DNA from: Oceanipulchritudo coccoides
GTDB taxonomy: Bacteria > Verrucomicrobiota > Verrucomicrobiia > Opitutales > Oceanipulchritudinaceae
DNA length: 64,000 nt
NCBI RefSeq assembly: GCF_010500615.1
Contig: NZ_JAAGNX010000003.1
Coordinates: 248,001 to 312,000 of the forward strand
Reading direction: 5' to 3'
Below the pieces are notes generated by a model. The model did not search any database and was not told the DNA's origin. It saw nothing but the letters and a program-made list of their open reading frames with translations. Below, one piece after another: positions 14,912 through 47,076 of this stretch. A program made the position numbers and the translations under genes. Positions within the stretch are counted from its first letter, which is position 1. Every line of letters begins with the position of its first letter.

Positions 14912-15017
14912 CGGAGCTTCCGAGCGGGCAGGCAGTGAAGTTGGATATTGTCTGGCCAAGCAGAAAAAAGCCCTTAGCATTTTACAAAGGTTCAATCCTC
15001 ACCGAATCAAAAAGCAT

Positions 15018-16007: not shown

Positions 16008-16074
16008 GAAAGAGATTGCCCGAGAGGCGCTAGATGGGTTGACGAAGGGCCGTAGCTGGGAAACTGTATCCATT

Positions 16075-17088
16075 ATGTCAAAGGCAGTTCTATTGGTTAA
16101 CCTGGGATCACCGGATTCCACTTCCGTTTCGGATGTAAAGCGTTATCTCGATGAGTTTCTCACGGATGAACGGGTCATCGATAAGGCATTTGTCCGGAAG
16201 GTCATCGTCCCGCTGATTATTTTGAATACGCGGCCCAAGAAGTCTGCGGAGGCCTATGCCAGCGTATGGACCGATGAAGGCTCCCCGCTGATTGTCACCA
16301 GTGAGCATCAGGCGGAAAAACTGGGCCAGTCTGTTGCCCCCAAGGTCTACTTGGCGATGCGCTACGGCAATCCGTCTATTGCGAACGTGATCAGCCAAAT
16401 CCTCAAGGACGGTGTGACTTCGCTTTATGTGATCCCGCTATATCCGCAATACGCGATGTCGAGCTACGAGACAGTGGTCGTCAAAGTGATGGAGGAGATC
16501 AACCAGCAGAAGCCGGATCTGGATGTCAGCTTTCTCCAGCCTTTCTACAATGACCCGGATTATCTGGATATTCTTGCCGAAAGCATCGGGGAAAACCTCC
16601 CTGAAGGCACCGACAAGCTGGTCTTCAGTTTTCATGGAATCCCCGAGCGGCACTTGCGCGTCTCGGATCCCTCCCACGCTCACTGCCTGTGTGTGAAGGA
16701 CTGCTGCACGCGTGCCAACCCGGCCCATGCCACTTGCTACAAGCACCAGTGCCTGATGACCGTGAAGGGCGTTGTCGAGCGACTCAAGCTCCCGGAGGAC
16801 AAGTATTTCGTATCATTCCAAAGCCGGCTTGGTCGCGATCCATGGCTCACGCCGTATACGGACGCGACCCTTGCCCGGTTCGGGCGCGAGGGCGTCAAGA
16901 AAGTCCGGGTAGTTTGCCCGGCCTTTGTCACCGACTGCCTTGAAACGCTGGAGGAAATTGCTGAGGAAGCGAAGGAGATTTTCGAGGATGCCGGCGGAGA
17001 GGATTTCGCGGTGATTCCCTGCCTGAACGAGGATGACCGCTGGATACAATACCTTGCCAAACAGGTTGAGGGCTGGCTTAACTCCTAA
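16075..17088 (+). CDS. hemH: ferrochelatase with Cys-rich insert (candidate [2Fe-2S] type)
   Basis: Ferrochelatase inserts Fe(II) into protoporphyrin IX (or coproporphyrin III) as the metallation step of heme synthesis. The 337-residue protein starts with the usual VLLVNLGSPDS and has the catalytic histidine in FSFHGIPERH (residues 184-193, H187) and the late acidic helix DCLETLEEI. The ATG at 16075 is chosen because LLVNLGSP lies 5 residues in. After the catalytic His an unusual Cys-rich stretch, residues 204-226, holds C204, C206, C210, C211, C221 and C226. A four-cysteine internal segment at this place marks a described class of [2Fe-2S] ferrochelatases, so a cluster is likely. The gene heads a tight run: 18 bp to the HemX-like gene, then 2 bp to hemA. 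Confidence 0.96.
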   Translation: MSKAVLLVNLGSPDSTSVSDVKRYLDEFLTDERVIDKAFVRKVIVPLIILNTRPKKSAEAYASVWTDEGSPLIVTSEHQAEKLGQSVAPKVYLAMRYGNPSIANVISQILKDGVTSLYVIPLYPQYAMSSYETVVVKVMEEINQQKPDLDVSFLQPFYNDPDYLDILAESIGENLPEGTDKLVFSFHGIPERHLRVSDPSHAHCLCVKDCCTRANPAHATCYKHQCLMTVKGVVERLKLPEDKYFVSFQSRLGRDPWLTPYTDATLARFGREGVKKVRVVCPAFVTDCLETLEEIAEEAKEIFEDAGGEDFAVIPCLNEDDRWIQYLAKQVEGWLNS

Positions 17089-19657: not shown

Positions 19658-19750
19658 GGAGAGATGGCTGAGTGGCCGAAAGCGCCCGCCTGCTAAGTGG
19701 GTATACGGCGTAAAACCGTATCGAGGGTTCGAATCCCTCTCTCTCCGCCA
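19658..19750 (+). tRNA. tRNA-Ser (anticodon GCU)
   Basis: A class II tRNA of 93 nt with encoded CCA. The acceptor stem GGAGAGA (19658-19664) pairs with TCTCTCC (19740-19746), followed by G and CCA. The anticodon stem CCCGC/GTGGG (19685-19689 and 19697-19701) encloses the loop CTGCTAA, with anticodon GCT at 19692-19694, reading AGC/AGU. A long variable arm with TACGG/CCGTA follows, as expected for serine tRNAs, and the T arm is GAGGG-TTCGAAT-CCCTC. The last 23 bases recur at 47054-47076, so this tRNA is the integration target of the island that follows. Confidence 0.97.
19728..19750 (+). repeat. attL core: 3' end of tRNA-Ser
   Basis: The T-loop to CCA part of tRNA-Ser, starting TTCGAATCCC and ending TCTCCGCCA, is repeated exactly (23/23) and in direct orientation at 47054-47076. 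The flanking bases differ on both sides (G before and GTATT after here; T before and TTCGG after in the other copy). This is the classic footprint of tyrosine-recombinase integration into a tRNA 3' end. Confidence 0.92.
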
Positions 19751-19848: not shown

Positions 19849-21123
19849 GTGGCAACGAATACAAATTCAGTTGAATTCCCTCCGAAATCCGGAATCAAGA
19901 TCCGGCCGATCGACAACGCCAGTGCCGGCAAGAAATTCGGGATCAGTTATCAGGTAACCGTGCCAGCAAAAGTCACTGGCAAGCGCCGGATTCGGAAGCA
20001 GTTCCCCTCATACAAGAAGGCCGAGGCTTGGGCCAAGAAGCAACACAGGGGGATTCAAACGGACGGCCACGCCTTCTTTAAACTCTCTGGAACTGAGCGT
20101 CAGGAGGTCGGTGTCATGGTTCCTAAATTAAGGGACAAGGGAATCAGTGTCACGGAGGCCATTCAGTTCGCTCTGGACCGCCTCAGACCGTCCGGCGGGG
20201 AACGCACCCTGTCTGAAGTAATAACCGAGTTGCAGTCATACAAGCTCAAGCGGCATGAGGCGGGGGATCTGGCTTATCATTCCCTCAGGGACTTCAACAC
20301 CCGCACAGGTGTGATCAAATCCGCCTTGGGCGATTATTCGATCCACGAGATTGATTCCGCACAGGTCAAGGCGTGGCTTGCAGGGATCAAAGGCTCAGAC
20401 CGTACGCGCAAGAATTATCTACGGATAATCAGTGAGCTTTTCCGCTACTCCACGCAAAAGAAGTACATACTACTGAATCCAATCGATGATCTCAGCGACC
20501 ACGACCGCAAAGAGCTCCACGGGCGATTGATGAACAACGGTGATGTTGGGATTCTCACCGTCAACCAGGCAGAGGACCTGCTACACTTCACTCGGGATCG
20601 ATGGCCCGAATTTCTGGGGATTATTGTCCTTGGGCTTTTCGCTGGGATCCGGACTGAGGAATTGCAGAAACTCACATGGGACAAGGTCAACCTCAAAGAT
20701 GGCTACATCACCATCGATGCGACAATCAGCAAGAAGCGCCGTATCCGCCACACTACCCTGCCCGACAATGCCAGGGAATGGATTCTAACCATCAGTGATC
20801 GAAAGGGAAATATCTCACCCTGTTCAGGCAAGGCGTTCGACAATGTGTTCGTCAAACTTCGCAGGGAGGCCGGTTACGCAGACAAGAAGAAACACTCAAC
20901 CTGGCCGCGCAACGCAATGCGGCACTCTTTCGGGACTTACCATTACGCCCTTCACGGCGACGCCACCAAGACCGCAAAGGAGCTTGGTCACAAGGAGGGG
21001 GACCAGGTGCTGTTCGATCACTACCGAGCCCTGGCAACGAAGGCACAGGGAGAAGCCTTCTTCGGCATCAAGCCGGGGCAACGGAAACAACAGGCCTTAA
21101 AATTTAAGGAGAAGAAAGCATGA
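19849..21123 (+). CDS. int: tyrosine recombinase (island integrase)
   Basis: A 424-residue site-specific recombinase that would integrate and excise the island at tRNA-Ser. An N-terminal arm-binding region precedes a SAM-like core-binding domain (about 120-220) and the catalytic domain (about 235-395). Catalytic residues seen: Arg in FAGIRTEEL (R268), Arg in RNAMRHSF (R358), His in ELGHKEGDQ (H381) and the nucleophile Tyr in DHYRAL (Y392). The box II position usually filled by His (HxxR) is Asn355 here, as in some other integrases of this type. Start: an in-frame stop lies just upstream, so translation begins at the GTG at 19849, which overlaps an AAGGAG; that spacing is too short, so a slightly later start is possible. 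Its end overlaps the next gene by 4 bp. Confidence 0.94.
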   Translation: MATNTNSVEFPPKSGIKIRPIDNASAGKKFGISYQVTVPAKVTGKRRIRKQFPSYKKAEAWAKKQHRGIQTDGHAFFKLSGTERQEVGVMVPKLRDKGISVTEAIQFALDRLRPSGGERTLSEVITELQSYKLKRHEAGDLAYHSLRDFNTRTGVIKSALGDYSIHEIDSAQVKAWLAGIKGSDRTRKNYLRIISELFRYSTQKKYILLNPIDDLSDHDRKELHGRLMNNGDVGILTVNQAEDLLHFTRDRWPEFLGIIVLGLFAGIRTEELQKLTWDKVNLKDGYITIDATISKKRRIRHTTLPDNAREWILTISDRKGNISPCSGKAFDNVFVKLRREAGYADKKKHSTWPRNAMRHSFGTYHYALHGDATKTAKELGHKEGDQVLFDHYRALATKAQGEAFFGIKPGQRKQQALKFKEKKA

Positions 21124-24113: not shown

Positions 24114-27100
24114 TCACACCCAATCCGCGCACAGCAGTTCCGCCTGCATCAGTACCGTCTTTACCGCCTCTTCCTGGAGATCTGGCGGGTAGCCGTGCTT
24201 CTTCAGAATTCGTTTCACCATGACCTTGATTTTGGCCCTGGCACTCTCCCGTAAGGTCCAGTCGATGGTCACACTCTTGCGGACCTTGGTGACCAGTTCG
24301 GCGGCGATGACCTTGAGTTCGTCATTGCCCATGGCCTTGACGGCGCTCTCGTTGTTGGCGAGGGCATCGTAGAAGGCGATTTCGTCCTCATTCAGACCCA
24401 GGTCTTCCCCGCGCTGGGTGGCCTGGTTGAGTTCCTTGGCCAGTTTGATCAATTCTTCAATGACCTCCATCGTGGAGATGGCTCGGTTGTGGTAGGAATT
24501 GAGGGTACGCTTGAGCATTTCGCTGAATGCCTGGCTCTGGACCAGATTCCGTTTTGAGCGAATCTTGATCTCGTCCTTGAGGAGCTTGGCCAACAGCTCT
24601 GCCGCGACATTCTTGTGCTTGAGTCCCTTGACCTCTGCCAGGAACTGTTCTGAGAGGATGGAGATGTCGGGTTTCTTCAATCCTGCCGCGGTAAAGACAT
24701 CGATAATCCCCTCATCGGCCGTGATAGCCGAGGAGACCAATTGCCGGATGGCCGCATCCATTTCATCAGGAGATTTCTGGGCGGCGGTTGTCTTGGCAAA
24801 CTGTGCCTTGATGGCCTGGAAAAAAGCGATGTCGTCCCGGAGTTCGATTGCCTCATCAGTGGCAGCACACAGGGCGAAGGCCCTGGATAGATCGGTGACC
24901 GTGCGGACAAAGCGCGACTTCCCGTCCTCCTGCTGCAGAATATGTTCCTGTGCGGCCGGCAGAAGGCCGATCTTCTCCGCAGGGGTACCAGATACCCACT
25001 TGCCCCAATCAAAGCCATGAAGAAGCCCACAGCCGATTTCATGCCTCTCCTGCATAACGGCAATGGCCTCTGCCGTGTCATGGCTTGGGGTTCCCCTGCC
25101 CCCGCTCTCCGTATAAGTGGCCAGGGCGTGCTTGAGTTGGTCGGCCAGTCCCAGATAATCCACGACCAATCCACCAGGCTTATCCCTGAATACGCGGTTC
25201 ACCCGGGCGATTGCCTGCATGAGCCCATGACCCCGCATGGGCTTATCAATATACATCGTGTGCAGACACGGGGCATCGAAGCCCGTCAGCCACATATCCC
25301 GGACAATCACGATACGGAAGGGATCCTTGGAATCCTTGAAGCGTGTCGCCAGCTCCCTGCGTCTTGGCTTGTTGCGGATGTGCTGCTGCCAATCGGGTCC
25401 ATCGCTGGCACTGCCCGTCATGACAATTTTCACAACAGCCTGTTTCTTCTTCTCCGCCTCGACATCGTCGTTGGGTTCGCTGGCCCAGTGCGGACGAATC
25501 TTTATAATGGCGTTGTAGAGATCCACGCAAATGCGACGGCTCATGCAGACGACCATCGCCTTGCCCTCCATGGCTTCTTGCCTCCGCTCGTAATGCTTCA
25601 CCAGATCCTCGGCAACAAGGGCAACCCGCTTAGGGTCTCCCACCATCACCTCGACCGCTGCCCACTTGGTTTTCAGCTTCTGGCGATCGCTCTCCTCTTC
25701 ACCCTCGGTCAGCTCCTCAAATTCCTCATCCACATGCGGGAGAAGGTTCTCATTGAGCGACAGCTTGGCGATGCGGCTCTCATAATAGATCGGCACAGTG
25801 GCCCCGTCTTCGACAGCACGCTGGATGTCGTATATTGAGATGTAATCCCCAAAGATGGCACGGGTATTGGCATCAGTCTTCTCAATCGGTGTGCCTGTGA
25901 ACCCGATAAAGGATGCATTGGGCAAGGCGTCCCGCAGGTTGCGGGCAAAGCCGTCAATCAGGTCGTATTGGCTGCGGTGTGCCTCATCAGCAATGACCAC
26001 GATGTTACTGCGGTCCGAGAGCAGCGGCATGCGCTCCCCTTTCCCATCCGGCATGAATTTCTGGATTGTCGTGAAGACCACTCCCCCGCTGGCTACTTTG
26101 AGAAGACTCCGCATGTTATCCACAGAATCAGCCTGCTGGGGCATCTGGCGCAGCAATTCATAGCACCGCTGGAACTGACCGAATAATTGGTCATCCAGAT
26201 CATTCCGGTCCGTCAGCACAACAAGGGTCGGATTCTGCATGGCTGGATGACGCACAATCCGAGCAGCATAAAACAACATGGAGAAGCTCTTGCCACTTCC
26301 CTGGGTATGCCAGACCACCCCTGCCCGGCGGTCACCTGGCTTCCCGTTCTTCTGCCGTCCAACCCAGAACTTGCCTTCCTGTTCCTGAAGTTCTTGCTCT
26401 GAAGCCAACCCGCTTGCCCGGACCGTCTCATCGACCGCCCCATTCACCGCATGGAACTGATGGTATCCGGCAATGATCTTGCTCAGGCGGTCGCTGTCGG
26501 TGTCGTCCTCAAAGACAATGAAATGCTCCAGCAGATCGAGGAGGCGTTCCTTCTGGAAGACCCCCTGAATCAGGACTTCCAATTCCAGGGCCGTATGCGG
26601 AGCATCCCCTTCCCCATCGATAGTTCGCCAGACCTTGAACCATTCCTCGCTGGCCGTCAGCGATCCGATCCGAGCCATCGGGCCATCCGAGACAATAAGC
26701 AGCTCGTTGTAATGAAATAGCGACCCGATTTCCTTCTTGTAGGTCTGTAGTTGTTTGAAAGCACTCCAGATGGTCGCGTTCTCATCAGCCGCGTTCTTCA
26801 GCTCAATAACGCCGATCGGCAGGCCGTTGACGAAGACAACTATGTCCGGCTTCCGGTTGTGCTGCCCCTCAATTACCGTGAACTGGTTGACCGCATAAAA
26901 ATCATTGGAGACCGTATCCACAAAGTCCACCAGGCGGACATGATCCCCCGCAATCGATCCATCAGGCCGACGATACTCCACGGGTACACCATCCCGCAGC
27001 ATCGCATGAAAGGCGCGGTTGGTTTGAACCAATGAGGGCGTAGCAATTCGTAGAACTTTCCGGATCGCCTCCTCTTGGGCATCGCCAGGAATACTGGGAT

Positions 27101-27272
27101 TCAACCGATGCACCGCCGCCCGCAGTCGTCCTTCAAGAACTACATCTCCAAAACTATTACGCTCCGCAGCAGCCTCCCCAGGCGCAATGTGCGGACCATG
27201 CCCAATCTGATACCCGAGTTCCTCGAACCAGGTCAGGGCAGCGTCTTCGATTATGGATTCGTTGAGGGGCAT
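24114..27272 (-). CDS. hsdR: type I restriction enzyme, HsdR subunit
   Basis: The motor and nuclease subunit of a type I R-M complex. 1052 residues from the ATG at 27272 ([20 protein letters not shown]), where family conservation starts. The N-terminal PD-(D/E)XK nuclease has D143 and E157-x-K159 in [18 protein letters not shown]. The SF2 translocase follows with Walker A TQGSGKS (323-329), [17 protein letters not shown] at 429-432, [11 protein letters not shown] and a motif VI region around [20 protein letters not shown]. The C-terminal helical part would dock to HsdM/HsdS. All key residues are intact, so it should be active. Its start overlaps the stop of the membrane-protein gene by one base (TAATG), which suggests coupled translation. 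Confidence 0.97.
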
Positions 27273-27691
27273 TATATATTCAAAATCCCTTTCATCAGAC
27301 AAATTGTTCCTATTCCATAAAGGACGACTGTACCAAGATCGAATACAATGACTGGCCAGGTGAGATTAGAATATTGTTCGCTGTATTTGAATCGTTTCTT
27401 CCCAACAAAAGTTTCATCAATCTCACCAAGGTACTGATAACCCATTGCCACCTTGTATAGAAAAACCTCGAGGAACTGAAGGATCACACCACCAAAGAAA
27501 AAACCAAAAACGAGCAGTGCTTGCCCTGATTCGTTAACGGAATTGGCAAAGTCGGCGTTTGTAGCAAATAAGAAAGGGACCCCAATTCCAAATGCAATTA
27601 ACCAATTCCTCAATACTGTTGAATGGCGAGAATACGCCTCATAGTATCCCGTGTCTCTCTGTTTTTTGAGATTTTCAGTTGTAGGATTCAT
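27272..27691 (-). CDS. small membrane protein inside the R-M operon
   Basis: A 139-residue protein with three hydrophobic helices at about 29-44 ([15 protein letters not shown]), 57-78 ([20 protein letters not shown]) and 110-132 ([20 protein letters not shown]), plus a charged N-terminus and a charged loop between helices two and three. No family is recognised. It sits between the nuclease gene (11-bp gap) and hsdR (one-base stop/start overlap), so it is almost certainly translated with the restriction genes. The layout recalls small membrane effectors in defence operons, but nothing in the sequence proves such a role. Confidence 0.78.
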
Positions 27692-27702
27692 CTGTATAAA
27701 AT

Positions 27703-28629
27703 TTAAGACCCCACCAATTTAAAAGACACCTGATACCGATAAAATTTCACATTTGGCACGACTGACAATGCCCAGCGAACTCGCTTGTCGTCTTCTAGGG
27801 CAATGATTACGCCCTCTACCGTTTGACCGTTCTCCGCCAACTCCTCTTTCACATACCCCATGTAGCGGGCAATCTGCCCGACCACCCTGTCGCTGGCCCT
27901 GCCCTTCTTAAGTTCGATAACCAGGAGTCTTTTACCGTCTTTGCTGACAGCGAGAATGTCGATTGGGCCAGTGTCCGTGGGATACTGTTGGCCTATTATA
28001 TCCCCGTTGTCCTGAAAAATGTCATACTCATGAGACAGCTCCGTTGAGGACCAGTTAGTCACAAGGAAATCCTCAAGATGTTTTTCCAATGCAAATGCCG
28101 AGGGATCCTCAACCGTAGAATCTTCACCTCCGGGTTCCGGTGTTATAATTCCAGCCATTAGCTTATCAATTTCCATGCTATGACGGGTTAGATTACTAAC
28201 GGTCAAAGCAGACCCGCAGGAGCCTTTCAATGCGTCAGACATATCACTACGGTCGATTGATTTATTCAACCACTGCACAGCCCGACGATGTGGCAGAATT
28301 TCATTTTCCTTATACTCGTAAGGGCCAGAAACCTGCCCAAGATGATATTGTCCTGATCCATCAGGACAGAGCAGGATGTCTCCTAATTGCATTCCTTTCG
28401 CCACAGTCCACAGGGCCCCACAGGCAAGCCCTGCTGCAATCTTTGTTTTCTCAGGCCGTGCCTCCAAGAACACCGGAATGAACTTTTTATTAAATTCTCT
28501 CCACTCATCAGGCAACTGGCCCGTCAGGTCTTGGTGAATCTCAAAGTTAACGCCTACAAAGCCGCCAGCAAGGCATTCAGCAGCATAGATGCTCTTCGCT
28601 CCCAACATTAATCTATGGTAATTTTTCAT
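27703..28629 (-). CDS. EVE/PUA-like plus NucS-like PD-(D/E)XK nuclease
   Basis: A 308-residue protein from the ATG at 28629, which overlaps the preceding stop (TAATG). Residues 82-120 (LGDILLCPDGSGQYHLGQVS, then GPYEY and an HRRAVQW strand) have the layout of the EVE/PUA-like N-terminal domains found in Mrr-type restriction proteins, which read modified bases. The C-terminal 180-300 resembles NucS/DUF91 nucleases: D224 in TGPIDILAVS, E239 and K241 in LLVIELKKG, then a Q-x-x-x-Y pattern in VVGQIARYMGYV, together a complete PD-(D/E)XK site. The combination suggests a type IV (modification-dependent) endonuclease. It lies inside a type I R-M operon between hsdS and hsdR. The nuclease call is firm; the EVE call is tentative. 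Confidence 0.85.
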   Translation of the reverse strand: MKNYHRLMLGAKSIYAAECLAGGFVGVNFEIHQDLTGQLPDEWREFNKKFIPVFLEARPEKTKIAAGLACGALWTVAKGMQLGDILLCPDGSGQYHLGQVSGPYEYKENEILPHRRAVQWLNKSIDRSDMSDALKGSCGSALTVSNLTRHSMEIDKLMAGIITPEPGGEDSTVEDPSAFALEKHLEDFLVTNWSSTELSHEYDIFQDNGDIIGQQYPTDTGPIDILAVSKDGKRLLVIELKKGRASDRVVGQIARYMGYVKEELAENGQTVEGVIIALEDDKRVRWALSVVPNVKFYRYQVSFKLVGS

Positions 28630-28958
28630 TATAAGTTTCTTTCGCTCCTCCAATATCGCCCACTCGAATAAATCGGCCCATTGGGATGATTCCCATGGTA
28701 AAACGGCGGTTCGGGACATGCCAAAAACTTCTGCGCCTCAGGATCTTCGCTGAACCGGGAAAATCCGTTCATGAGCAATTCCCTCTCCGCCTCGGCTACC
28801 GTTGAAAAGGACAATTTATCAAAGACCCCGCTAGTGTCTCCAATGAAGTAGACGGTCACACCGGCATCCTCTTGCTCAATCAGGGCCCAGTTCTGTTGAA
28901 GCATTTCAATAACCTTGAACCAGTAGTCCCGGCTTTGGATTTTAATATCTTCCATCAT
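28629..28958 (-). CDS. small hypothetical protein of the R-M operon
   Basis: A 109-residue soluble, acidic protein ([20 protein letters not shown]). It starts with an amphipathic helix, has a strand-rich middle (AGVTVYFIGDTSGVFDKLSF) and ends in a Pro/Gly/Tyr-rich segment (PFYHGNHPNGPIYSSGRYW). I do not recognise the family. The start overlaps the hsdS stop (ATGATG across TGA) and its stop overlaps the nuclease start (TAATG), so it is locked into the operon. A role as partner or inhibitor of the neighbouring nuclease is possible but only inferred from position. Confidence 0.75.
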   Translation of the reverse strand: MMEDIKIQSRDYWFKVIEMLQQNWALIEQEDAGVTVYFIGDTSGVFDKLSFSTVAEAERELLMNGFSRFSEDPEAQKFLACPEPPFYHGNHPNGPIYSSGRYWRSERNL

Positions 28959-30247
28959 GAGGCCATCTCCTCGGCTTCGGTCACGGATAGTTCCCCACTA
29001 AGTAGTTTGGGGAGAAGGGTGTCTCGGAGGTTGGCGAGGGTGCGGGACTCCATAAGATTTGATTTAATTCTGTTCAAAAAATTTCCTGCTGCGGAGCCGA
29101 AAACATTGGTAATTTCTGCAGGCATAACCGTTGCATTCAATGTATCGAAAGTTTGCCGAGTGATTGTATCAAAGACAGTCCCATGAGTTCTTTGTTGAAG
29201 ATCCCCAATAGCTTCTTTGATGAGGAAGTAGATAAAGATATTATCGAATCCAGAAACTCCACGAATCCCATAGCATGATTGATTCATTGCCATGGGCACA
29301 CCCACTAAGGCTAACTTACCAACAGTTCCGCGGGCACTAATAATCGTTGTATTCTCGGGAAGAATCTTTGCGGCACTGTTGTCAATTCCAAGTTGAGAAA
29401 CATTTTTTTCAGTATTAATTACCCATACATCAGTCTCCTGGGGAGAATCTTTAACGGAATACCAAGGAATGTTACCATTCCAATATTCGTCTACTGATGT
29501 CTTGGGTGTTCCACCACTGAGAATCTCTATAATTTCAAACAAAGGAGCAACCTCCCACCCCTCAGGGATCGGTCCCAGCTCCGACTCGACAAACTTACTG
29601 GGGAAGAGCTTAGCGGTCTCGGCATCCATTCCGGCGGGCTGGCGGCCATCCATCTTGACACGGACAGGATCAAAATCGACAAACCAACTCTTGAACAGGG
29701 CCCGGGCCATGGCCTCCAGCGTCTCGTTCATCTTGCGGTTCAGCTCTATCTTGTCGTCAAGCGTGCCGAGGATGTGGGCGATGGCTTTTTGTTCGGGGAG
29801 AGGGGGGAGATAAATTTCTAATGATGAAACTTGATCAAATGTGATTTGTGGAAATGTGCCAGAGCGAGATTCCGCAAGATGTTGGAGCCAATTTGTGGTG
29901 TGCGTGCTCGTCAGAAACTGATAAAGATACCTCGGGAAAACTTTCTCCTTATTTGCCCTTATTACCATTAATTTCGTAGAAACCACATAATCGTTCGCTT
30001 CAAAATCTATGTATGCCCACCTTCCGTTTGCTGGCCTGATTTCACTAAAAAGAATGTCATCCAAACGGATAGATTTTTTGGCCTGCCCCGGCCAATCCTT
30101 GACGGAGGAATAATTGCGGTGCAGAAGACCTCCATTATGAATATCCGAAGTGTTTAAAAATATTAGCTCCTCCTTATTGAAACTGTGAGTTTCAGAAATG
30201 GAAGATGCTACTTGTCCAACTTCAACAATTGGGACTTCAGTCGCCAT
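28955..30247 (-). CDS. hsdS: type I restriction enzyme, HsdS specificity subunit
   Basis: The DNA-recognition subunit, 430 residues. Two variable target-recognition domains (about 1-150 and 225-375) are each followed by a conserved helical spacer. The central spacer reads [20 protein letters not shown], then the family motif [20 protein letters not shown]; the second TRD opens with [10 protein letters not shown] and LSGGTPKT; the C-terminal repeat ends with [16 protein letters not shown]. Both half-site domains look intact, so the site should be bipartite; its sequence cannot be deduced. The start lies 11 bp inside the 3' end of hsdM. Confidence 0.96.
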
Positions 30248-31868
30248 ATCGAAGTCCTCTTAAATTTCTAAGAATTTCCTTCTCCAACCTCGCCGACTCC
30301 TCAAACTGCGCCTCAAGTTCCGTCACCAGCCGCGGCATCTTCTCCTCGAAGGGCTCGCCATCATCCTCGACATCCTCAGCCCCAACATAGCGACCTGGCG
30401 TCAGGACATAGCCGTGCTTCTCAATCTCCTCAGTAGAAGCCGATTTGCAGAATCCGGGAATGTCCTCGTAAGGGGCTGACAAACTCAATTGGATACCCTT
30501 CTTCTCAGCGATCTCCAGAGTTTTTTCTATATCCCATCGCCACAAATGGTATGTGTCGGAAATCTTGGCAATGTCCTCCTCAGTCAATTCCCGGTGCACA
30601 CGATCGACGAGTGTTCCCATCTTGCGTGCATCAATGAACAGGGTCTCACGATGCCGGGACCGGATAGCCTCACCACCTTTTGACTCCCGGGCCGACTTGT
30701 TACGGGTCAGGAACCAGAGACAGACTGGAATAGCCGTGGAGTAAAACAACTGCCCTGGCAGGGCTACCATGCAATCGACCAAATCCGCCTCAATCATCGC
30801 CTTACGAATCTCACCCTCCCCCGACTGGTTGGATGACATGCTGCCATTGGCGAGGACAAATCCCGCTGTCCCGTTCGGGGCCAGGTGATGAAGAAAATGC
30901 TGCACCCAGGCAAAGTTGGCGTTGCCCTTGGGCGGGATACCAAACTGCCAGCGGACATCGTCCTCATTGCGATGCCAGTCCGAATCGTTGAAGGGGGGAT
31001 TAGCCAGGACAAAGTCAGCCTTCAAGTCCTTGTGAAGGTCACGACGAAAGGTATCGGCATGCTCAGGACCGAAGTCCGCCTCGATTCCCCGAATAGCGAG
31101 GTTCATGACCGCCAGGCGCCGGGTTGTGGAATTGCTCTCCTGTCCATAGACGGAGATGTCCCCGATCCGGCCCCCGTGCTCCAGGACAAACTTCTCCGAC
31201 TGGACAAACATCCCGCCCGAGCCGCAGCAGGGGTCATAGACGCGTCCATGATACGGGGCCAGCATCTCGACCAGCAAGCGCACCACATAGGAAGGCGTAT
31301 AGAACTGCCCTCCCCGCTTGCCCTCGGCACTGGCAAATTGGGACAGGAAATACTCGTAGACCCGTCCCAGGACATCCTTGGAACGGTTCTCCTTGTCGCC
31401 CAGGCCAATTGTGCTGACAAGGTCAATCAGCTCACCCAGACGGTGCTTATCCAGAGCAGGACGGGCATAGTCCTTGGGCAATACTCCCTTCAACCGTGGA
31501 TTGTCCCGCTCAATGGCCACCATGGCATCATCGACAATCTTCCCGATCGTCGGTTGCTTGGCATTGGCCTGGAGATTGGCCCAACGGGCCTCCTTGGGGA
31601 CCCAGAACACATTCTCGGCCTTATATTCGTCCGCATCCTCCGGGTCGGCTCCCTCAAAGTCCCCCTCTCCCGCCGCCAGCTTGGCGTGCATCTCCTCAAA
31701 GCTGTCGGAGATATACTTCAGGAAAATCAGCCCCAGCACCACATGCTTGTATTCCGCCGCATCCATGTTGCTGCGCAGCTTGTCGGCAGCCAGCCAGAGC
31801 TTGGCCTCAAATCCGATGTTGGCGGTGGAATTGGCGTTCTTTTTGGCAGTCTTCTTCTTCGGGGGCAT
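30237..31868 (-). CDS. hsdM: type I DNA adenine methyltransferase, HsdM subunit
   Basis: The modification subunit, an N6-adenine methyltransferase that also forms part of the restriction complex. 543 residues from the ATG at 31868 ([10 protein letters not shown], a Lys-rich tail). The N-terminal helical domain includes [20 protein letters not shown] and [18 protein letters not shown] binding is seen in [11 protein letters not shown] (211-221) and catalysis in ANPPFND (289-295, NPPF class gamma). The C-terminal helices contact HsdS. It is the first gene of the operon. The ATG lies inside a repeated 75-bp element whose second copy is at 36416-36490; there is no Shine-Dalgarno sequence. Confidence 0.97.
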
Positions 31869-31932
31869 AGGCAATGTCGCTTTCAGGAATCGATATGGCG
31901 GCCCCCACCCGATTCTGCAAACGAAAAGTAGG
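31857..31932 (-). repeat. copy A of a ~75-bp element carrying the hsdM start
   Basis: The block around the hsdM initiation codon. Bases 31857-31887 match 36416-36446 at 30 of 31 positions, and 31917-31932 match 36476-36490 but for one extra G; the 29 bases between are looser. Read leftwards it ends with CTGAAAGCGACATTGCC, TATG and the first four hsdM codons (MPPK). It is probably a promoter/translation-initiation region, since each copy sits directly upstream of a minus-strand gene. Confidence 0.8.
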
Positions 31933-35207: not shown

Positions 35208-36401
35208 TTATTTGAACCAGGAAAAGGACGCTGGTTCCGGGGACTTCAAATATTTGTTGAAGAAATCATCGGCTCTGGATTTTACAGCTTTCATGTCTTC
35301 AGAACTCAGCATCTGTTTGTAATGATCCAGCCATTCCTCAAATTCTTTGGAAATTTTAGAGCTTTTATCAGCAGAAAGATAACTGCATTTAGCAAAGAGG
35401 AGCCACTTATAAGACTCAACAAGACTGACCGGTTCCTCCGTTGCATAAATTTTACAGAGGTAGTACTGTGCCTCAGGAACATTCTGTTTAGCGGCCTTTA
35501 GAAACCAACTTTTAGCCTGCTTTCGATCTACAGGAACACCGACCCCGTTATAATTCATCAGGGCCACGGCTAACTGGGACTTCCCATAGCCCAGCTCTGC
35601 CGCTCTATGGTGCCAATAGTATGCTTTTTTCTCATCTTTTAGCACACCCTCCCCCTTGGCATAAAATTCACCCAATGCATTCTGTGAGTACATGTGATCA
35701 TTTTGGGCTGCCTTTTCAATCCACGATAATCCACGGCCAAGATCTTTGGATACAACCTCTCCACGAAAATACATCATGCCCAATGAAGACCGGGATTGTA
35801 CATTCCCGTTCTCTGCGGCCAGCTTAAGCCAATAAACAGACTTTTTGTAGTCGTTTAGACCATACCAATTAGAGTGGTACATAAACAAGTCGGCTTGAGC
35901 CTTCGCACTACCTTTCTTGGCCCGCTCAACTATCTTACCAAAATTGACTAGGGAAAGAGGCAACGGGTCGCTGAAATAATTTTCCCCACCCATATAATTC
36001 CTTATATAGATTTTGTAGATCTCAGATTCTATTGACGATATGGGTATATACGGAAAAGAGCCATCCTCCTTGCATAGATTCGCTAAATTCTCTTCCAACG
36101 TTTCAGAGATGCACATCAGCGGCCTTCCAAAACTATATTGCAGGTGCTTTAATGTATTCAGAAGAATATAGTCTGAAAAATAAACCTGATTGGGCGCATT
36201 ATCACGCCCTTCCGTTGAATCGTTATTCAAAACGACAATAAGCAATTCCGGATCATACCGATCACACAACGCTCCCATCTCCGGTAGTGAGCTCACCTGG
36301 AGTAATTCTACACGGCAGGGTCTTTCTCTGGAATAAGCCCGTCGGATCATACTCCACCATTTCACCGGTTCTAACCCATCGCCGCAAAGAAGCACTTTCA
36401 T
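35208..36401 (-). CDS. Sel1-repeat protein with receiver-like N-terminal domain
   Basis: A 397-residue soluble protein. Residues 1-125 (MKVLLCGDG ... PELLIVVLNND ... LMCISETLEENL) have the alternating strand/helix order of a CheY-like receiver but lack a clear phospho-acceptor site. Residues about 155-330 hold at least four Sel1-like repeats (GLNDYKKSVYWLKLAAENGN, VSKDLGRGLSWIEKAAQNDH, LKDEKKAYYWHHRAAELGYG, VPVDRKQAKSWFLKAAKQNV). Sel1 proteins act as protein-interaction scaffolds; the partner here is unknown. The start codon overlaps the stop of a 9-codon leader reading frame (ATGA), so the gene is probably translated by coupling from the hsdM-like start just upstream. Confidence 0.85.
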   Translation of the reverse strand: MKVLLCGDGLEPVKWWSMIRRAYSRERPCRVELLQVSSLPEMGALCDRYDPELLIVVLNNDSTEGRDNAPNQVYFSDYILLNTLKHLQYSFGRPLMCISETLEENLANLCKEDGSFPYIPISSIESEIYKIYIRNYMGGENYFSDPLPLSLVNFGKIVERAKKGSAKAQADLFMYHSNWYGLNDYKKSVYWLKLAAENGNVQSRSSLGMMYFRGEVVSKDLGRGLSWIEKAAQNDHMYSQNALGEFYAKGEGVLKDEKKAYYWHHRAAELGYGKSQLAVALMNYNGVGVPVDRKQAKSWFLKAAKQNVPEAQYYLCKIYATEEPVSLVESYKWLLFAKCSYLSADKSSKISKEFEEWLDHYKQMLSSEDMKAVKSRADDFFNKYLKSPEPASFSWFK

Positions 36402-36517: not shown

Positions 36518-39121
36518 CTATTCCTCGGGTCCGGCCCGATAAAACTGCTTGTCCCCGGTGCGGGACTGATAGAACCGCGATATGGAGGACCCGTTTCCAG
36601 GGATTCCGGCCTCGAGGACAGTCCATGTATTCAAGTCCGTTGATTTCTCTATTTGGTATGTGACGCCCAGCACGGCGTTAAAGGTGAACTCAACCGCTGG
36701 GTAAATTTCCGCGAAGGCACCCGGGACACTGGTGTCTGAAGTTGGATCAAATCCAGACTCAACCTCAAACTTGTCCAGAAATCCGTCTCCGTCGCTGTCC
36801 TGAGAATTTGGGTTTGAGGCATAAACAACTACTTCCGTGTAGTCATCCAATCCATCTTCATCTGTATCGATTAACAATGGGTCGGAACCATGAATATTCA
36901 CTTCATCTCCATCGGACAACCCATCTTGGTCACTATCCCACCCGAGGGGATCGGTTGAATGGGTATTCAACTCCTCAGCATCCTCAAGCCCATCTCCATC
37001 CGTATCAGATTCATTCGGATTTAACCCAACAAACTCGAAGATGTAACCGTCTGCTACGAACTCGGAATTTGAGTCAGCCCAACTGGCAGTATCTGAAAGG
37101 ATGACAACATTGCTTTCAAACATCCCGCCGTCAGGTTGACCGCTATACCATCTATTGTAATTGAGTGCAGTCCCATCTCCCCAGATCCAGGAGCCCTCGG
37201 TAACAGAGTCGGTCAAGCTGATCCAGAAATTGCCACTCACTACCTGACGAAGCTGCAACACGAAATCCGTATATTCACTACCGTCTAGGAAAGAAGCGAC
37301 ACGCCCACCGCGGATATTGGCATCCGCCTCAGCCTGGGAGTAAGTTAAAGCTCCTTCAATGACATAGAAAAGGCTGTCATTGTAACTGACTTCAAAGTCA
37401 TCCGCTAAGCTGTCTCCATCGGTATCAGCAAGAGCTGGATTTGTTCGGTACAGGTTCAATTCGTCGAAATTGCTTAGATTATCCCCGTCCAGATCCTCAA
37501 GGTTGTCATTTGTACCATTCTCATCGCTATCCTCTAAAAGAGGATTTGTCAGGGTCTGGTTGATCTCCTGACCATCTGTAAGAAAGTCCCCATCTGTATC
37601 GGCTAGGGTTGGATCGGTTAAATGAGTACTTAGCTCATCGAGGTTTGTGAGCCCATCCCCATCAAAATCTTCCAGTCCATCCAGGGTGCCGTCATCATCA
37701 GAATCCTGAAGGGTTGGATCGGTAAGGAGCAGATTTACCTCGTCGCCGTCACCAATCTGGTCTCCGTCGGTGTCTTTCAGGCGAGGATCTGTTCCGTATG
37801 TATTCACTTCAACACCGGTTGTCAGCCCATCCCCATCAAAGTCCTCATCGGAATCCGCTGTGCCGTTGTTATCGGAATCCGCGAGCAGGGGATTCGTCAA
37901 TGACTTGGTCTGTTCGTCGCCGTCCGCGAGCCCATCGTCATCGGTATCTGCATCATTGGGGTCAGTCCCCAAGGCAATTTCAACGCCATCATCCAACCCG
38001 TCATCATCAGAATCACTCAGGGTTGGATCGGTCAATACGGCGGACTCAATAATATACGCCTCACGGGTAACCGTCAGGCCCGTATCAAACCATTCTCCAA
38101 TGGAGGCACCGAATCCCCCACTCACCTCGGCAACATCGGAGTTGTTAAAATCATCCGGCTGCCCAAGCGCCCAAAGTTCAAAGGTAAAAGGCTCCCCAGT
38201 GACCCATGTCCAATTGCCTTCAGTGTCTATATCGTTGGCCCCGATCCAAGCGCCTGAGATACTGTCCAAAGCACCGGCTCCGATTGATTCCATGGCAATG
38301 TCCCACTCTCCCTGACTCGTAAATGTCGCAAGGTGCCCATCATTTGCCTCTGCATCCACCTTGGCCTGACCCCATGTGAAGGACCCGACAATTAGGTTGA
38401 ATCTATTTAAACCCAATTCTGTTCGGTCATCGATCCCATCGCCGTCCGAATCGGCAAGGAGTGGATTGGTCTCATAGAGGAAAAGCTCATCAAAATCATT
38501 CAAGCCATCTCCGTCCGTATCAGGATCATTCGGGTCGGTGCCATAATTCGTTTCCTCCTCATCGTCCAGCCCGTCACCGTCGGTGTCGGGAATCGGTGGG
38601 AAGCCATTGAAGATTAACTGAACCGTTTCGGCTCCGCCAATGCCCAGTAGAATCTGAAGGTCAACATGGCCAATATACCGATTATCAAAGGTGCTTAGGA
38701 ATGGGGCGGACTCCATTACACAAATTTGATTCCCAAGACCCAGAGCTGCTGGAGTTACTGCATCTGTGAATAGAATAACAACTTTCTCACCCACATTTAT
38801 ATTAATTAGGGCGCCTAGTTCAAGATTCGGAGTCATGTAACTTATTCCGGCTGAAGCTCCATCCACCAACGGATTCCAACTGACGGATTGCAATTGCACC
38901 AATCCAGGATCATCAGGAAATGGACCCAACGGATCAGTGAACTCAAACAATGTGCCTGAGGGAACTATCCCGTAAAACCCATTAATCGGGCCACCATAGT
39001 CTCCATTGGATCCATCTGCCTGAATGATCCGCCCATACTCAAAATATACAGCGAAGCTTTGAGCGCCCAGGAGAGATGGAAGGAAGAGAATCAGAAATGA
39101 TACGAGCTTTTGTGTTTTCAT
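36518..39121 (-). CDS. secreted protein with two C-type lectin-like domains and TSP3 repeats
   Basis: An 867-residue exported protein from the ATG at 39121 (signal peptide MKTQKLVSFLILFLPSLLGA). After a PEP-CTERM-like beta domain (about 21-175) come Ca-binding thrombospondin type-3 repeats of the form D-x-DGDGLDD-x-E-E. Two C-type lectin-like domains follow, at about 241-359 (FTWGQAKVDAEANDGHLATF ... GAWIGANDIDTEGNWTW) and about 583-705 (LTYSQAEADANIRGGRVASF ... FWISLTDSVTEGSWIWGDG). TSP3 blocks separate and follow them. The end (YQIEKSTDLNTWTVL ... KQFYRAGPEE) is the tail shared with other secreted proteins here. It probably binds Ca and perhaps carbohydrate at the surface. It is a complete gene inside the island. 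Confidence 0.88.
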   Translation of the reverse strand: MKTQKLVSFLILFLPSLLGAQSFAVYFEYGRIIQADGSNGDYGGPINGFYGIVPSGTLFEFTDPLGPFPDDPGLVQLQSVSWNPLVDGASAGISYMTPNLELGALININVGEKVVILFTDAVTPAALGLGNQICVMESAPFLSTFDNRYIGHVDLQILLGIGGAETVQLIFNGFPPIPDTDGDGLDDEEETNYGTDPNDPDTDGDGLNDFDELFLYETNPLLADSDGDGIDDRTELGLNRFNLIVGSFTWGQAKVDAEANDGHLATFTSQGEWDIAMESIGAGALDSISGAWIGANDIDTEGNWTWVTGEPFTFELWALGQPDDFNNSDVAEVSGGFGASIGEWFDTGLTVTREAYIIESAVLTDPTLSDSDDDGLDDGVEIALGTDPNDADTDDDGLADGDEQTKSLTNPLLADSDNNGTADSDEDFDGDGLTTGVEVNTYGTDPRLKDTDGDQIGDGDEVNLLLTDPTLQDSDDDGTLDGLEDFDGDGLTNLDELSTHLTDPTLADTDGDFLTDGQEINQTLTNPLLEDSDENGTNDNLEDLDGDNLSNFDELNLYRTNPALADTDGDSLADDFEVSYNDSLFYVIEGALTYSQAEADANIRGGRVASFLDGSEYTDFVLQLRQVVSGNFWISLTDSVTEGSWIWGDGTALNYNRWYSGQPDGGMFESNVVILSDTASWADSNSEFVADGYIFEFVGLNPNESDTDGDGLEDAEELNTHSTDPLGWDSDQDGLSDGDEVNIHGSDPLLIDTDEDGLDDYTEVVVYASNPNSQDSDGDGFLDKFEVESGFDPTSDTSVPGAFAEIYPAVEFTFNAVLGVTYQIEKSTDLNTWTVLEAGIPGNGSSISRFYQSRTGDKQFYRAGPEE

Positions 39122-39390
39122 TGGAGATGACGAAGTGCGGTTCAACGGAATAATTGACCCGCAACCAAACATCAAGCAAATCTGTAAAAACTATTGAGCA
39201 GTTCCACGGCAATTGGCCCCTAGAAAGCCCCTAAATCGATGTCGGCTTCCAGCCATAGCATGGCAGGCAGATGGCGCCCTACCTTTGGAAATTTCTGGCC
39301 AGCCCAAGGCAGCGGGAATATACCGATTTTAGCACCGGGCCTGCCCCAATGGTTGTCCGACCCTTCACGCTATACTCCATCACAAGAATC

Positions 39391-40446
39391 ATGAGCTTCG
39401 TACCCTGGCATAACTCAGCTTCGCAAATAAGCTCAGAAGCCCTCGAGTATCCCGCCAACCCGGACGGGAACTCCTCCATGCGTGCGTTTCTGGACGAGCA
39501 GGCATTCTTCGGCATTCGAGAGTCCTATCGCCGGATGATTTATTGCTTCTCAAGCGGTGTCGTAGCCGCAAACACCGACCCACCCCTTGCTGCCCAGATT
39601 CTCCAATCGCTGAGGCCAGACCCTGCTTGCCTATTTACATATCTGGATTCGCTAGAGGAAGCCTACAGGGATGCCCAAGAGAGTTGGAAAGTTGACCCTA
39701 TTGAAACCACGCGCGCATGGCATGCAGCCCATGCGCAAGTGCTGAGAGGGCTAAACGAACTGTTCGATACTCGCAGCTCAAATGCCAATCCCGAATCATG
39801 GTATACTTTGGCCTTCTGCGCTGGCGTCCTAGCTCGTCAGCGAGGCACAGGCGGAGCCCGGTATGTCCTACAAAAATTGGCGAGGCTGCGGATACGGGTG
39901 GAATGGTATTTGTTTTCATTTGTTATTTTCCACGCACAAGAACGGGAATGGTTTAACTGGGAAACGCCCCTCCAGCGGTTTATCGGAGGCTGCTACACCG
40001 AGATTCCAACCTTACAGGCAATCATGCCCGCCCTGTTCGAGCAGATTACCACCAATATCCCAGAAGGCGTGAAACATGATCCGAACGAGAGTTTATTCAA
40101 AGGGGCCTTTTTTGCCGGGGTGGAAGCCGCTAGATCCGAGCCAGAAATTCTGGAGAATATCATACAAGAGTTGGCGAATGCCCCGGCTGAAGATACCTCT
40201 GCTGACCGGATCTGGCTGATCAAGAAGCACGCAGTCGCCACCTGCGATCCTAAGAAAGCGTATTCCCAGCTCTGGCCAGATGCCCTTGTGTCCATTTCCG
40301 AACGATTCCCGGAAATTGTGCCCGATCCTGAGAGCCCCGCCCGAGCGATGCAGCTATGGGCGACCCTTCAAGCCATAATGGATGCAGGATACTGGGCTGG
40401 GCTCTACGTGGGTCGTCCGGAGGCGTTTGAAACTTCAAAATCCTAA
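39391..40446 (+). CDS. unrecognised protein, first gene of a two-gene unit
   Basis: A 351-residue soluble, largely helical protein from the ATG at 39391 (MSFVPWHNSASQISSEALEY); longer upstream frames lack a good start. Paired segments such as FGIRESYRRMIYCFSSGVVA, WYTLAFCAGVLARQRGTGGA and LFKGAFFAGVEAARSEPEIL suggest a repeated helical unit with an AFxAGV-A-R/A motif. No known catalytic motif is seen. Its stop is 2 bp before the next gene, so the two form an operon. Nothing in the sequence identifies the process; a defence role is only suggested by its place in an island next to a restriction system. Confidence 0.75.
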   Translation: MSFVPWHNSASQISSEALEYPANPDGNSSMRAFLDEQAFFGIRESYRRMIYCFSSGVVAANTDPPLAAQILQSLRPDPACLFTYLDSLEEAYRDAQESWKVDPIETTRAWHAAHAQVLRGLNELFDTRSSNANPESWYTLAFCAGVLARQRGTGGARYVLQKLARLRIRVEWYLFSFVIFHAQEREWFNWETPLQRFIGGCYTEIPTLQAIMPALFEQITTNIPEGVKHDPNESLFKGAFFAGVEAARSEPEILENIIQELANAPAEDTSADRIWLIKKHAVATCDPKKAYSQLWPDALVSISERFPEIVPDPESPARAMQLWATLQAIMDAGYWAGLYVGRPEAFETSKS

Positions 40447-40448
40447 CC

Positions 40449-41696
40449 ATGAGCGAACCAACCGTAACTTACGCCAACGAATCCAGAATCACCGATCTTT
40501 TGCTGAGGGCAGAACGCCGATGGCTGTACATGGCCCCCGCCCTCAGTGAGGAAATTGCCAAAGCCATTGAGCATTTATGGCAAACTCTGGGATCAGACTC
40601 AGGCTCTGTCATCCTTGACGTTGATCCTGAGGTCTATCGGCTAGGTTATGGAACGCCTGGTGGATTGAAATTGCTGGAGAAAGCATCCCAACAATACGGG
40701 GCCTCCATCTGCAGACATCAGGAAGGCGTGCGCATCGGATTGGTTATCAGCGACGATAATACTCTCATCTTCACGCCGACTCCGCTCCTTATCGAGGCGG
40801 GCTCCAGTATTCCGGAACACCCAAATGCTATTGAATTGTCTGCTCTGCCAAATGACATTGCGCGCGATGTCGGCCTCGGGCCCGAAGGTGCCTGTGAGCA
40901 GACAGTCGGCCTTGATCATGTGGATCAGGAGACCATGTCGAAGACCCAATCAGATTTGGATAAAAACCCTCCAGTAAAATTTGACATTGCTCGGACAGTC
41001 AGGGTTTTCAATTCCCAACTTGAATTCGTGAACCTGGAAATAAAGGGATGCTTGCTCTCCAAGAGCACGGCAAAAATTCCTTCCGCGTTAATGGGACTTG
41101 CCGCCTCAGATGAGATGATTGCAAAGCTGACTGCTTCTTATAAATTGGTTGAGAAAAAGGATCTTATTGAAGAAAACGGAAAGTCCTTCGAGGATCGGAT
41201 TCGGCAAAAACGGAAAGTCTTGGATAAAAATTATCTACGCAATATTACGGGTTTTGGAAAAGTAATTCGACGAGACTTAAAGGAGGACTTCTTGAGAGAG
41301 GTAGCGGAACTGAAGAAGGAAATTGAGGTTTATAGAAACCGCATTAGGGATAAAATATCAGGCTACATCGAAAACAATGCGCATGACCTCACGCAAACTT
41401 TCTTCGATCCGGTTAAATCGAATATTCCAAAGGAATGGAGAGGTTCGCTCGGGAGAAATCCTAACGACAAGGATTTAAAGAGATTTCTGAAAGACCAGTT
41501 CGCTAACAGTTTTGGCAAACCAGAAAAATACACCGAGGAAATGTCCGTGAATTTACTTTTCAAAGGAGTCACTTACGAGACCCTTTCTGATGAGAATTTC
41601 ATAAAAATTGCCCAAGCCCATTTCCCCCAACTCCACCTTATGGAGGAATTTGATGCTGCCAGGGAAGTGCCTGAGCGGGAAGAATTTTTCAAGTAG
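40449..41696 (+). CDS. unrecognised protein with possible degenerate PLD-like N-terminus
   Basis: A 415-residue soluble protein, second of the pair with the gene at 39391. The first 130 residues (ITDLLLRAERRWLYMAPALS ... GVRIGLVISDDNTLIFTP) follow the order of a phospholipase D-like half-domain, with a basic/hydrophobic strand where HKD proteins carry H-x-K-x4-D, but the catalytic residues are missing. Residues about 200-330 are rich in Lys/Glu and helical (KKDLIEENGKSFEDRIRQKR, then RDLKEDFLREVAELKKEIEV), a likely coiled coil. The last part (KFLKDQF-like, LLFKGVTYETL, AQAHFPQL) is unassigned. The PLD relation is a guess from strand order. Confidence 0.75.
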   Translation: MSEPTVTYANESRITDLLLRAERRWLYMAPALSEEIAKAIEHLWQTLGSDSGSVILDVDPEVYRLGYGTPGGLKLLEKASQQYGASICRHQEGVRIGLVISDDNTLIFTPTPLLIEAGSSIPEHPNAIELSALPNDIARDVGLGPEGACEQTVGLDHVDQETMSKTQSDLDKNPPVKFDIARTVRVFNSQLEFVNLEIKGCLLSKSTAKIPSALMGLAASDEMIAKLTASYKLVEKKDLIEENGKSFEDRIRQKRKVLDKNYLRNITGFGKVIRRDLKEDFLREVAELKKEIEVYRNRIRDKISGYIENNAHDLTQTFFDPVKSNIPKEWRGSLGRNPNDKDLKRFLKDQFANSFGKPEKYTEEMSVNLLFKGVTYETLSDENFIKIAQAHFPQLHLMEEFDAAREVPEREEFFK

Positions 41697-47053: not shown

Positions 47054-47076
47054 TTCGAATCCCTCTCTCTCCGCCA
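47054..47076 (+). repeat. attR core: displaced 3' end of tRNA-Ser
   Basis: An exact copy of 19728-19750, the tRNA-Ser T-loop to CCA segment, without the rest of the tRNA. It marks the right edge of the island. The 8-bp unit GGGTCTAC is repeated twice just outside (about 47083-47098). Confidence 0.92.

What the first reader, a model, noticed from the sequence alone, without database searches (positions are those of the whole stretch)
39391..41696. Unrecognised two-gene unit inside a defence-carrying island
A 351-residue helical protein with AFxAGV repeats and a 415-residue protein with a possible degenerate PLD-like domain are 2 bp apart. Neither matches a family I know. Position near a restriction operon makes an anti-phage role worth testing.
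Basis: inference. Interest (0 to 1): 0.55.

Follow-up and report, generated by a model that had tools for sequence, protein, structure and literature searches.

The report
Dead-PLD protein shared by defence systems
One of the two genes belongs to an undescribed bacterial protein family, built on an inactivated phospholipase-D-type fold, whose members are found beside several unrelated phage-defence systems; its neighbour is almost an orphan.

Summary
Both genes are real and lie where stated: P1 39391-40446 (351 aa) and P2 40449-41696 (415 aa), 2 bp apart. Neither reaches a trustworthy match in Pfam, NCBIfam, PADLOC or PHROGs. They lie in a 27.3-kb element integrated at tRNA-Ser, flanked by a 23-bp repeat, with an integrase and a complete type I RM operon.

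P2 is the interesting half. It has 53 related loci across several phyla. Its N-terminus is a confident pseudo-PLD fold: the HxKx4D motif is degenerate, with His replaced by Arg in 48 of 48, no Lys in 48, and Asp kept in 48 of 48. Relatives lie in or beside BREX, HMA-type, SNF2-helicase/MTase, type I RM and TmtA/NERD-helicase loci. On one plasmid P2 sits inside the BREX operon between pglX and pglZ. Independent BREX/type I markers occur in 18 of 53 P2 loci and 0 of 36 control stretches. An 82%-identical P2 occurs in a BrxL locus and in a TmtA locus, so P2 changes partners.

P1 is nearly an orphan. It was absent from all 53 P2 loci, so the pair is not a recurring unit.

Best reading: P2 is a portable non-catalytic accessory subunit of DNA-targeting defence systems. 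Its biochemical role is inferred.

The parts
39391..40446 (+). P1, 351-aa predicted all-helical protein with four AFxAGV-type repeats; nearly an orphan
   Evidence: (model poor, pLDDT 39.5)
40449..41696 (+). P2, 415-aa pseudo-PLD protein, founder of a family with 53 related loci
40449..40952 (+). P2 residues 1-168: PLD-type fold
40731..40754 (+). degenerate HxKx4D motif of P2 (R95 ... D102)
40971..41663 (+). P2 residues about 175-405: alpha+beta domain with a 50-residue helix (275-324); invariant P327, K372
   Evidence: weak fold resemblance to DUF3150, not confirmed by profiles
19658..19750 (+). tRNA-Ser (gct); its 3' end 19728-19750 is the left attachment repeat
47054..47076 (+). right attachment repeat, 23 of 23 bases
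19849..21123 (+). tyrosine integrase of the element
   Evidence: phrog_1, 4.5e-29
24114..31874 (-). type I restriction-modification operon (HsdM, HsdS, PDC-S02 nuclease-like gene, small gene, HsdR)

Best explanation
P2 is a portable, non-catalytic accessory subunit of DNA-targeting defence systems (BREX, HMA and other SNF2-helicase/methyltransferase systems, type I RM and others). Shown: the N-terminal PLD-type fold with the catalytic His and Lys lost and the Asp kept, the association with these systems, and the change of partner system between near-identical copies. Inferred: the pseudo-PLD domain keeps a phosphate/nucleic-acid binding or anchoring surface instead of a cutting site; the long-helix C-terminal domain docks on the partner machine; so P2 recruits or licenses the partner on foreign DNA, or keeps it in check. 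In this window it is translated behind P1, a helical-repeat protein that I take to be a locus-specific partner, and it travels with a type I RM system in an integrated element.
For: PLD fold: model with mean pLDDT 90.9; VIA-align Z 10.8 to Nuc (1byr), 10.9 to TrmBL2, 10.2 to the pseudo-PLD FAM83B, 9.6 to the restriction enzyme SauUSI, all on residues 1-173. Dead site: R 48 of 48 at the His place, no Lys in 48, D 48 of 48. Context: 18 of 53 P2 loci against 0 of 36 control stretches hold a BREX or type I marker; with five further queries, own locus excluded, 25 of 53 against 1 of 36. An Acinetobacter towneri plasmid has brxA-brxB-brxC-pglX-P2-pglZ-brxL, P2 overlapping both neighbours. PADLOC names neighbours as HmaA, HmaB, TmtA, NERD-helicase, BrxL, type I MTase/specificity/REase, IIG enzymes and DrmMI. 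Partner change: the P2s of L030 (TmtA, NERD-helicase) and L033 (BrxL, weak PglZ) are 82% identical over 411 residues. On a 50-row tree context labels need 21 changes, shuffled mean 23.3.
Against: On the tree, 24 of 50 rows had no recognised defence label, and some copies seem to stand alone. In the window itself P2 is 7.5 kb from the RM operon and not in it. Controls came from one class and partly from few genomes, while the P2 loci span several phyla. Profile comparison finds no relation between the C-terminal domain and the partner helicases or one TmtA protein. No experiment.
Confidence: 0.55

Rival explanations
1. P2 is a guard: it monitors a restriction/BREX-type machine and, when a phage DNA mimic or anti-restriction protein blocks it, triggers a second line of defence (P1 in this window).
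For: Its partners are largely modification-dependent systems, of which BREX is known to be blocked by phage Ocr and to be accompanied by Ocr-sensing PARIS-type modules (PMC12839542, part 1 of section 35 read). P2 moves between such systems.
Against: No toxin or effector recurs beside P2: the immediate upstream genes differ from locus to locus, and P1 is absent elsewhere.
Confidence: 0.2
2. P1 and P2 are a self-contained two-gene defence system.
For: 2-bp gap, same strand, inside a defence island.
Against: P1 is absent from all 53 P2 loci and from the plasmids collection. Its one relative lies at a contig end, and no P2 was found in that genome.
Confidence: 0.12
3. P2 is a general cargo or regulatory protein of mobile islands (for example TrmB-like ligand sensing), near defence genes only because both ride in islands.
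For: Best structural matches include TrmB/TrmBL2. On the tree 24 of 50 rows have no defence label.
Against: P2 lies inside the BREX operon and overlaps pglX and pglZ; several copies overlap or abut defence genes.
Confidence: 0.15

Closest known systems
PLD superfamily nucleases of restriction systems (SauUSI, NgoAVII R protein; DrmC of DISARM)
   Same: PLD-type fold (Z 9.6 and 8.3 for the first two); found with restriction and DISARM-like systems
   Different: They cut through an HKD site (recalled; DrmC called a PLD endonuclease in PMC12458937, passages). P2 has lost His and Lys in 48 of 48 and has no DrmC match in PADLOC
Pseudo-PLD anchors: FAM83 DUF1669
   Same: PLD fold without PLD activity, described as anchors for CK1 isoforms (PMC6008594, search listing and start of abstract); Z 10.2
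   Different: Vertebrate proteins; no sequence relation was tested
Auxiliary genes of BREX and BREX-related systems
   Same: An extra gene inside or beside core BREX loci
   Different: The 2026 BREX survey lists auxiliary nucleases and places HKD domains in BrxL or in the helicase. The parts I read name no stand-alone degenerate-HKD protein (PMC12839542, part 1 of section 35 and passages; supplements not read)
DUF3150 (PF11348)
   Same: Possible fold resemblance of the C-terminal domain: Foldseek rank 3, E 0.076, prob 0.82
   Different: Not among the 25 Pfam families shown for 48 members; profile-profile probability 6.3% or less; plasmid copies lie in gene sets with AAA ATPase and VWA genes

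Membership tests
PLD (HKD) superfamily, fold | PLD-type alpha/beta fold | tested here: met
   pLDDT mostly above 90 over residues 1-168, Z up to 10.9
PLD (HKD) superfamily, enzymes | HxKx4D catalytic motif | tested here: not met
   Arg for His in 48 of 48, Lys in 0 of 48, Asp in 48 of 48
BREX system (window locus) | BrxC/PglX/PglZ core genes beside the gene | tested here: not met
   the island proteins scanned match type I RM and PDC-S02; no BREX core gene among them
BREX system (plasmid relative L082) | gene lies inside a complete type 1 BREX operon | tested here: met
   between pglX and pglZ, overlapping both
DISARM DrmC | match to DrmC profiles | tested here: not met
   no DrmC among PADLOC matches of P2 up to E 10 (only PtuB, 0.02)
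DUF3150 | match to PF11348 or to a DUF3150 profile | tested here: inconclusive
   weak fold match; no profile support
Defence system with anti-phage activity | protects against phage | not testable with these tools
   needs experiment

The most novel reading that the evidence does not exclude
P2 defines an undescribed, freely exchangeable defence subunit: one pseudo-PLD protein that plugs into at least four mechanistically unrelated DNA-targeting immune machines (BREX, HMA/SNF2-MTase, type I RM, TmtA/NERD-helicase) and does the same job in each, such as a shared sensor of invading DNA or a shared safeguard against anti-restriction proteins.
Probability: 0.3. Interest if true: 0.75.

Novelty: new variant of a known kind. 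Interest (0 to 1): 0.52.

Why it matters
Most defence genes are tied to one system type. A protein that swaps between unrelated machines, one 82%-identical pair being split between a BrxL locus and a TmtA locus, points to a step or a threat that these machines share. It is easy to test: the A. towneri BREX operon contains it as a separate gene. It also offers a family (alignment of 48 sequences, confident fold) that Pfam, NCBIfam and PADLOC-DB 2.0.0 did not name for the members scanned.

Tried and rejected
P1 homologues: 1 partial relative in 372 genomes of the order; none convincing in 286 of the class (best E 0.0066) or 387 of the phylum; none in viral contigs, plasmids or PDB sequences (best E 0.054). 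The P1 fold prediction failed (pLDDT 39.5), so I use only its all-helical trend.

P2 in phages: none with the window protein or with L064's, 50,697 records; none in viral contigs. In plasmids 2 of 72,556 records, the same two with three queries.

Idea that the P2 C-terminal domain matches the C-terminal domain of RapA/SNF2 helicases (from secondary-structure order and a passage in PMC12839542): hhalign of the family against 8 neighbouring helicases gave a probability of 0.6%. Dropped. The DUF3150 idea came from the BFVD fold search; profiles gave 0.3% and 6.25%. Left open. PDB matches of the whole model fall mainly on residues 1-168, so the C-terminal domain's fold is barely tested.

Empty site: a gene right of the element was sought in 19 genomes and found only in the own genome; no comparison possible.

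Papers: nothing found for DUF3150. Searches for an inactive-PLD or embedded BREX gene showed no paper on this family in the listings; two further searches, for TmtA and for SecB, were not followed. Only the passages and the section named in the report were read. Subscription journals and supplements were not covered.

Dropped rows: A3 has 48 of 54 (window plus 53 loci). L036 was left out because its called frame runs into other genes, L065 and L076 because they are broken, L078-L080 because only fragments match. The tree has these 48 plus two plasmid copies; labels were given by hand. For the PADLOC tally 100 of 111 neighbour proteins were given (11 dropped to meet the residue limit, one of them a P2 fragment). 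Of 40 control stretches asked for, 4 did not exist.

Full report
Observation. The two ORFs are present as described. P1 is 39391-40446, P2 is 40449-41696. Both have better codon scores in frame 0 than in frames 1 and 2 of the same strand (the opposite strand's frame 0 scores nearly as high, so this is weak support). P1 carries four AFxAGV-type sites about 94 residues apart, with clear similarity only between the first and third block.

Setting. The pair lies inside an integrated element. The last 23 bases of tRNA-Ser (19658-19750) recur exactly at 47054-47076, the only such match of 14 bases or more in the window. Just right of the tRNA stands a tyrosine integrase. The element holds a complete type I RM operon with HsdM, HsdS and HsdR, plus a gene that matches the PADLOC candidate PDC-S02 at 2.5e-151 and NucS-type nuclease profiles. 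Loci of the same class as the window's genome coincide in contig length with Verrucomicrobia records, so the window is most likely from a Verrucomicrobiota genome (inference).

P2 family. No library names P2. It has relatives in 5 other genomes of 286 in the class, one of them broken, and in 53 loci of the species-level genome collection: Verrucomicrobiota, Planctomycetota, Pseudomonadota, Thermodesulfobacteriota, Chloroflexota, Bacillota and Hydrogenedentota. The nearest is 52-53% identical (L028). In an alignment of 48, D57, G66, G68, R95, D102, E116, P327 and K372 are invariant.

Fold. The AlphaFold2 model has mean pLDDT 90.9 but pTM 0.64, as for two domains of uncertain relative placement. 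Residues 1-168 take the PLD fold: Z 10.9 TrmBL2, 10.8 TrmB and Nuc, 10.5 NucT, 10.2 FAM83B, 9.6 SauUSI. The plain Foldseek search gave no match below E 0.001 (best 0.0086, a PLD-family phosphatidylserine synthase) (collected). At the place of HxKx4D, P2 relatives have R in 48 of 48, then at the Lys place G (23), A (21), C (2), S (1), N (1), and D in 48 of 48. The catalytic His is therefore absent throughout, and cutting by the usual PLD chemistry is very unlikely (established knowledge of the PLD mechanism).

Context. By tblastn with nine proteins not taken from the P2 loci (window HsdR/S/M; BrxA, B, C, PglX, PglZ, BrxL from L082), 18 of 53 P2 loci hold a marker against 0 of 36 control stretches of similar total length (787 and 702 kb; Fisher p 2.5e-5). 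Adding five proteins out of P2 loci, each barred from its own locus, gives 25 of 53 against 1 of 36. The controls come from the window's class, several from one genome, so the p-value is only a guide. PADLOC on 100 neighbours gave DrmD/HmaA/BrxH-type helicases, DrmA, DpdE and type I enzymes among the 25 commonest families; many of these are overlapping helicase models. Single neighbours: L028 HmaA and HmaB (1.6e-94, 3e-125); L030 TmtA (E 0) and NERD-helicase; L033 BrxL (7.3e-133) with weak PglZ (3.6e-6); L050 a IIG enzyme and a DrmC-like protein (5.3e-7); L060 DrmMI; L072 type I MTase with specificity domains. On an A. towneri plasmid the P2 relative (annotated 'hypothetical protein') lies between pglX (ends 15001) and pglZ (starts 16254), itself 15001-16257, in a brxA-brxB-brxC-pglX-P2-pglZ-brxL run (brxA and brxB are annotated there as DUF1819 and DUF1788). 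The second plasmid copy, in Caballeronia, lies near transposase genes and a McrC-family gene. Of 49 loci with an upstream neighbour called, the window counted among them, 24 have it on the same strand within 60 bp.

Exchange between systems. On a tree of 50 sequences the context labels change 21 times (shuffled mean 23.3, as low in 15 of 200); each of four BREX copies is separate, while type I copies cluster somewhat (8 changes, shuffled 10.9, as low in 11 of 500). It is a quick tree, and several rows have long branches. The sharpest case does not need the tree: the P2s of L030 and L033 are 82% identical over 411 residues beside different systems. L034 (SNF2 helicase and large MTase) and L035 (BREX) P2s are sisters, 50% identical. 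The window's P2 is sister to that of L028, beside HMA-type genes (support 99).

P1. One partial relative (36% identity, cut by a contig end) in 1 of 372 genomes of the order besides its own. None in the P2 loci. I read P1 as a locus-specific partner or an unrelated island gene; the 2-bp gap favours co-translation but proves nothing.

Verdict. P2 is best explained as a portable pseudo-PLD accessory subunit. How it acts (DNA docking, licensing, guarding) is inference. The parts I read of a broad 2026 BREX survey (PMC12839542: part 1 of section 35 and passages) and of the YprA-helicase preprint (PMC12458937: passages) do not mention it, nor did the passages found in PMC10952713, PMC7530245 and PMC9122589.

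Noticed in passing
window 19728-47076: 27.3-kb integrated element between 23-bp repeats of the tRNA-Ser 3' end, lower in G+C than its flanks over much of its length.
   Followed up: yes
window 27703-28719 (-): Gene inside the type I RM operon matching the candidate defence family PDC-S02 (2.5e-151) and NucS/PDDEXK nuclease profiles.
   Followed up: partly
window 35208-36401 (-): Sel1-repeat protein (Pfam 9.5e-29) that also matches phrog_8741 (9.7e-38); a relative lies beside the P2 relative of L049.
   Followed up: no
window 36518-39175 (-): 885-aa likely secreted protein with many DxDxDG calcium-type repeats inside the element, next to the pair (read from the translation).
   Followed up: no
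L146-L150: DUF3150 genes on large plasmids, most of them in gene sets with an AAA/MoxR ATPase and a VWA protein; no paper in the held library names DUF3150.
   Followed up: partly
L028 9477-9983: SecB-like protein (Pfam SecB 3.4e-4, below cut-off) directly upstream of the P2 relative in an HMA-type locus.
   Followed up: no
L015 (G249): A broken P2 copy among fragments of helicase and methyltransferase genes, which looks like a decaying defence island.
   Followed up: no
L082 21069-24614: A CBASS-type cyclase operon directly after the BREX operon that contains P2 on an A. towneri plasmid.
   Followed up: no
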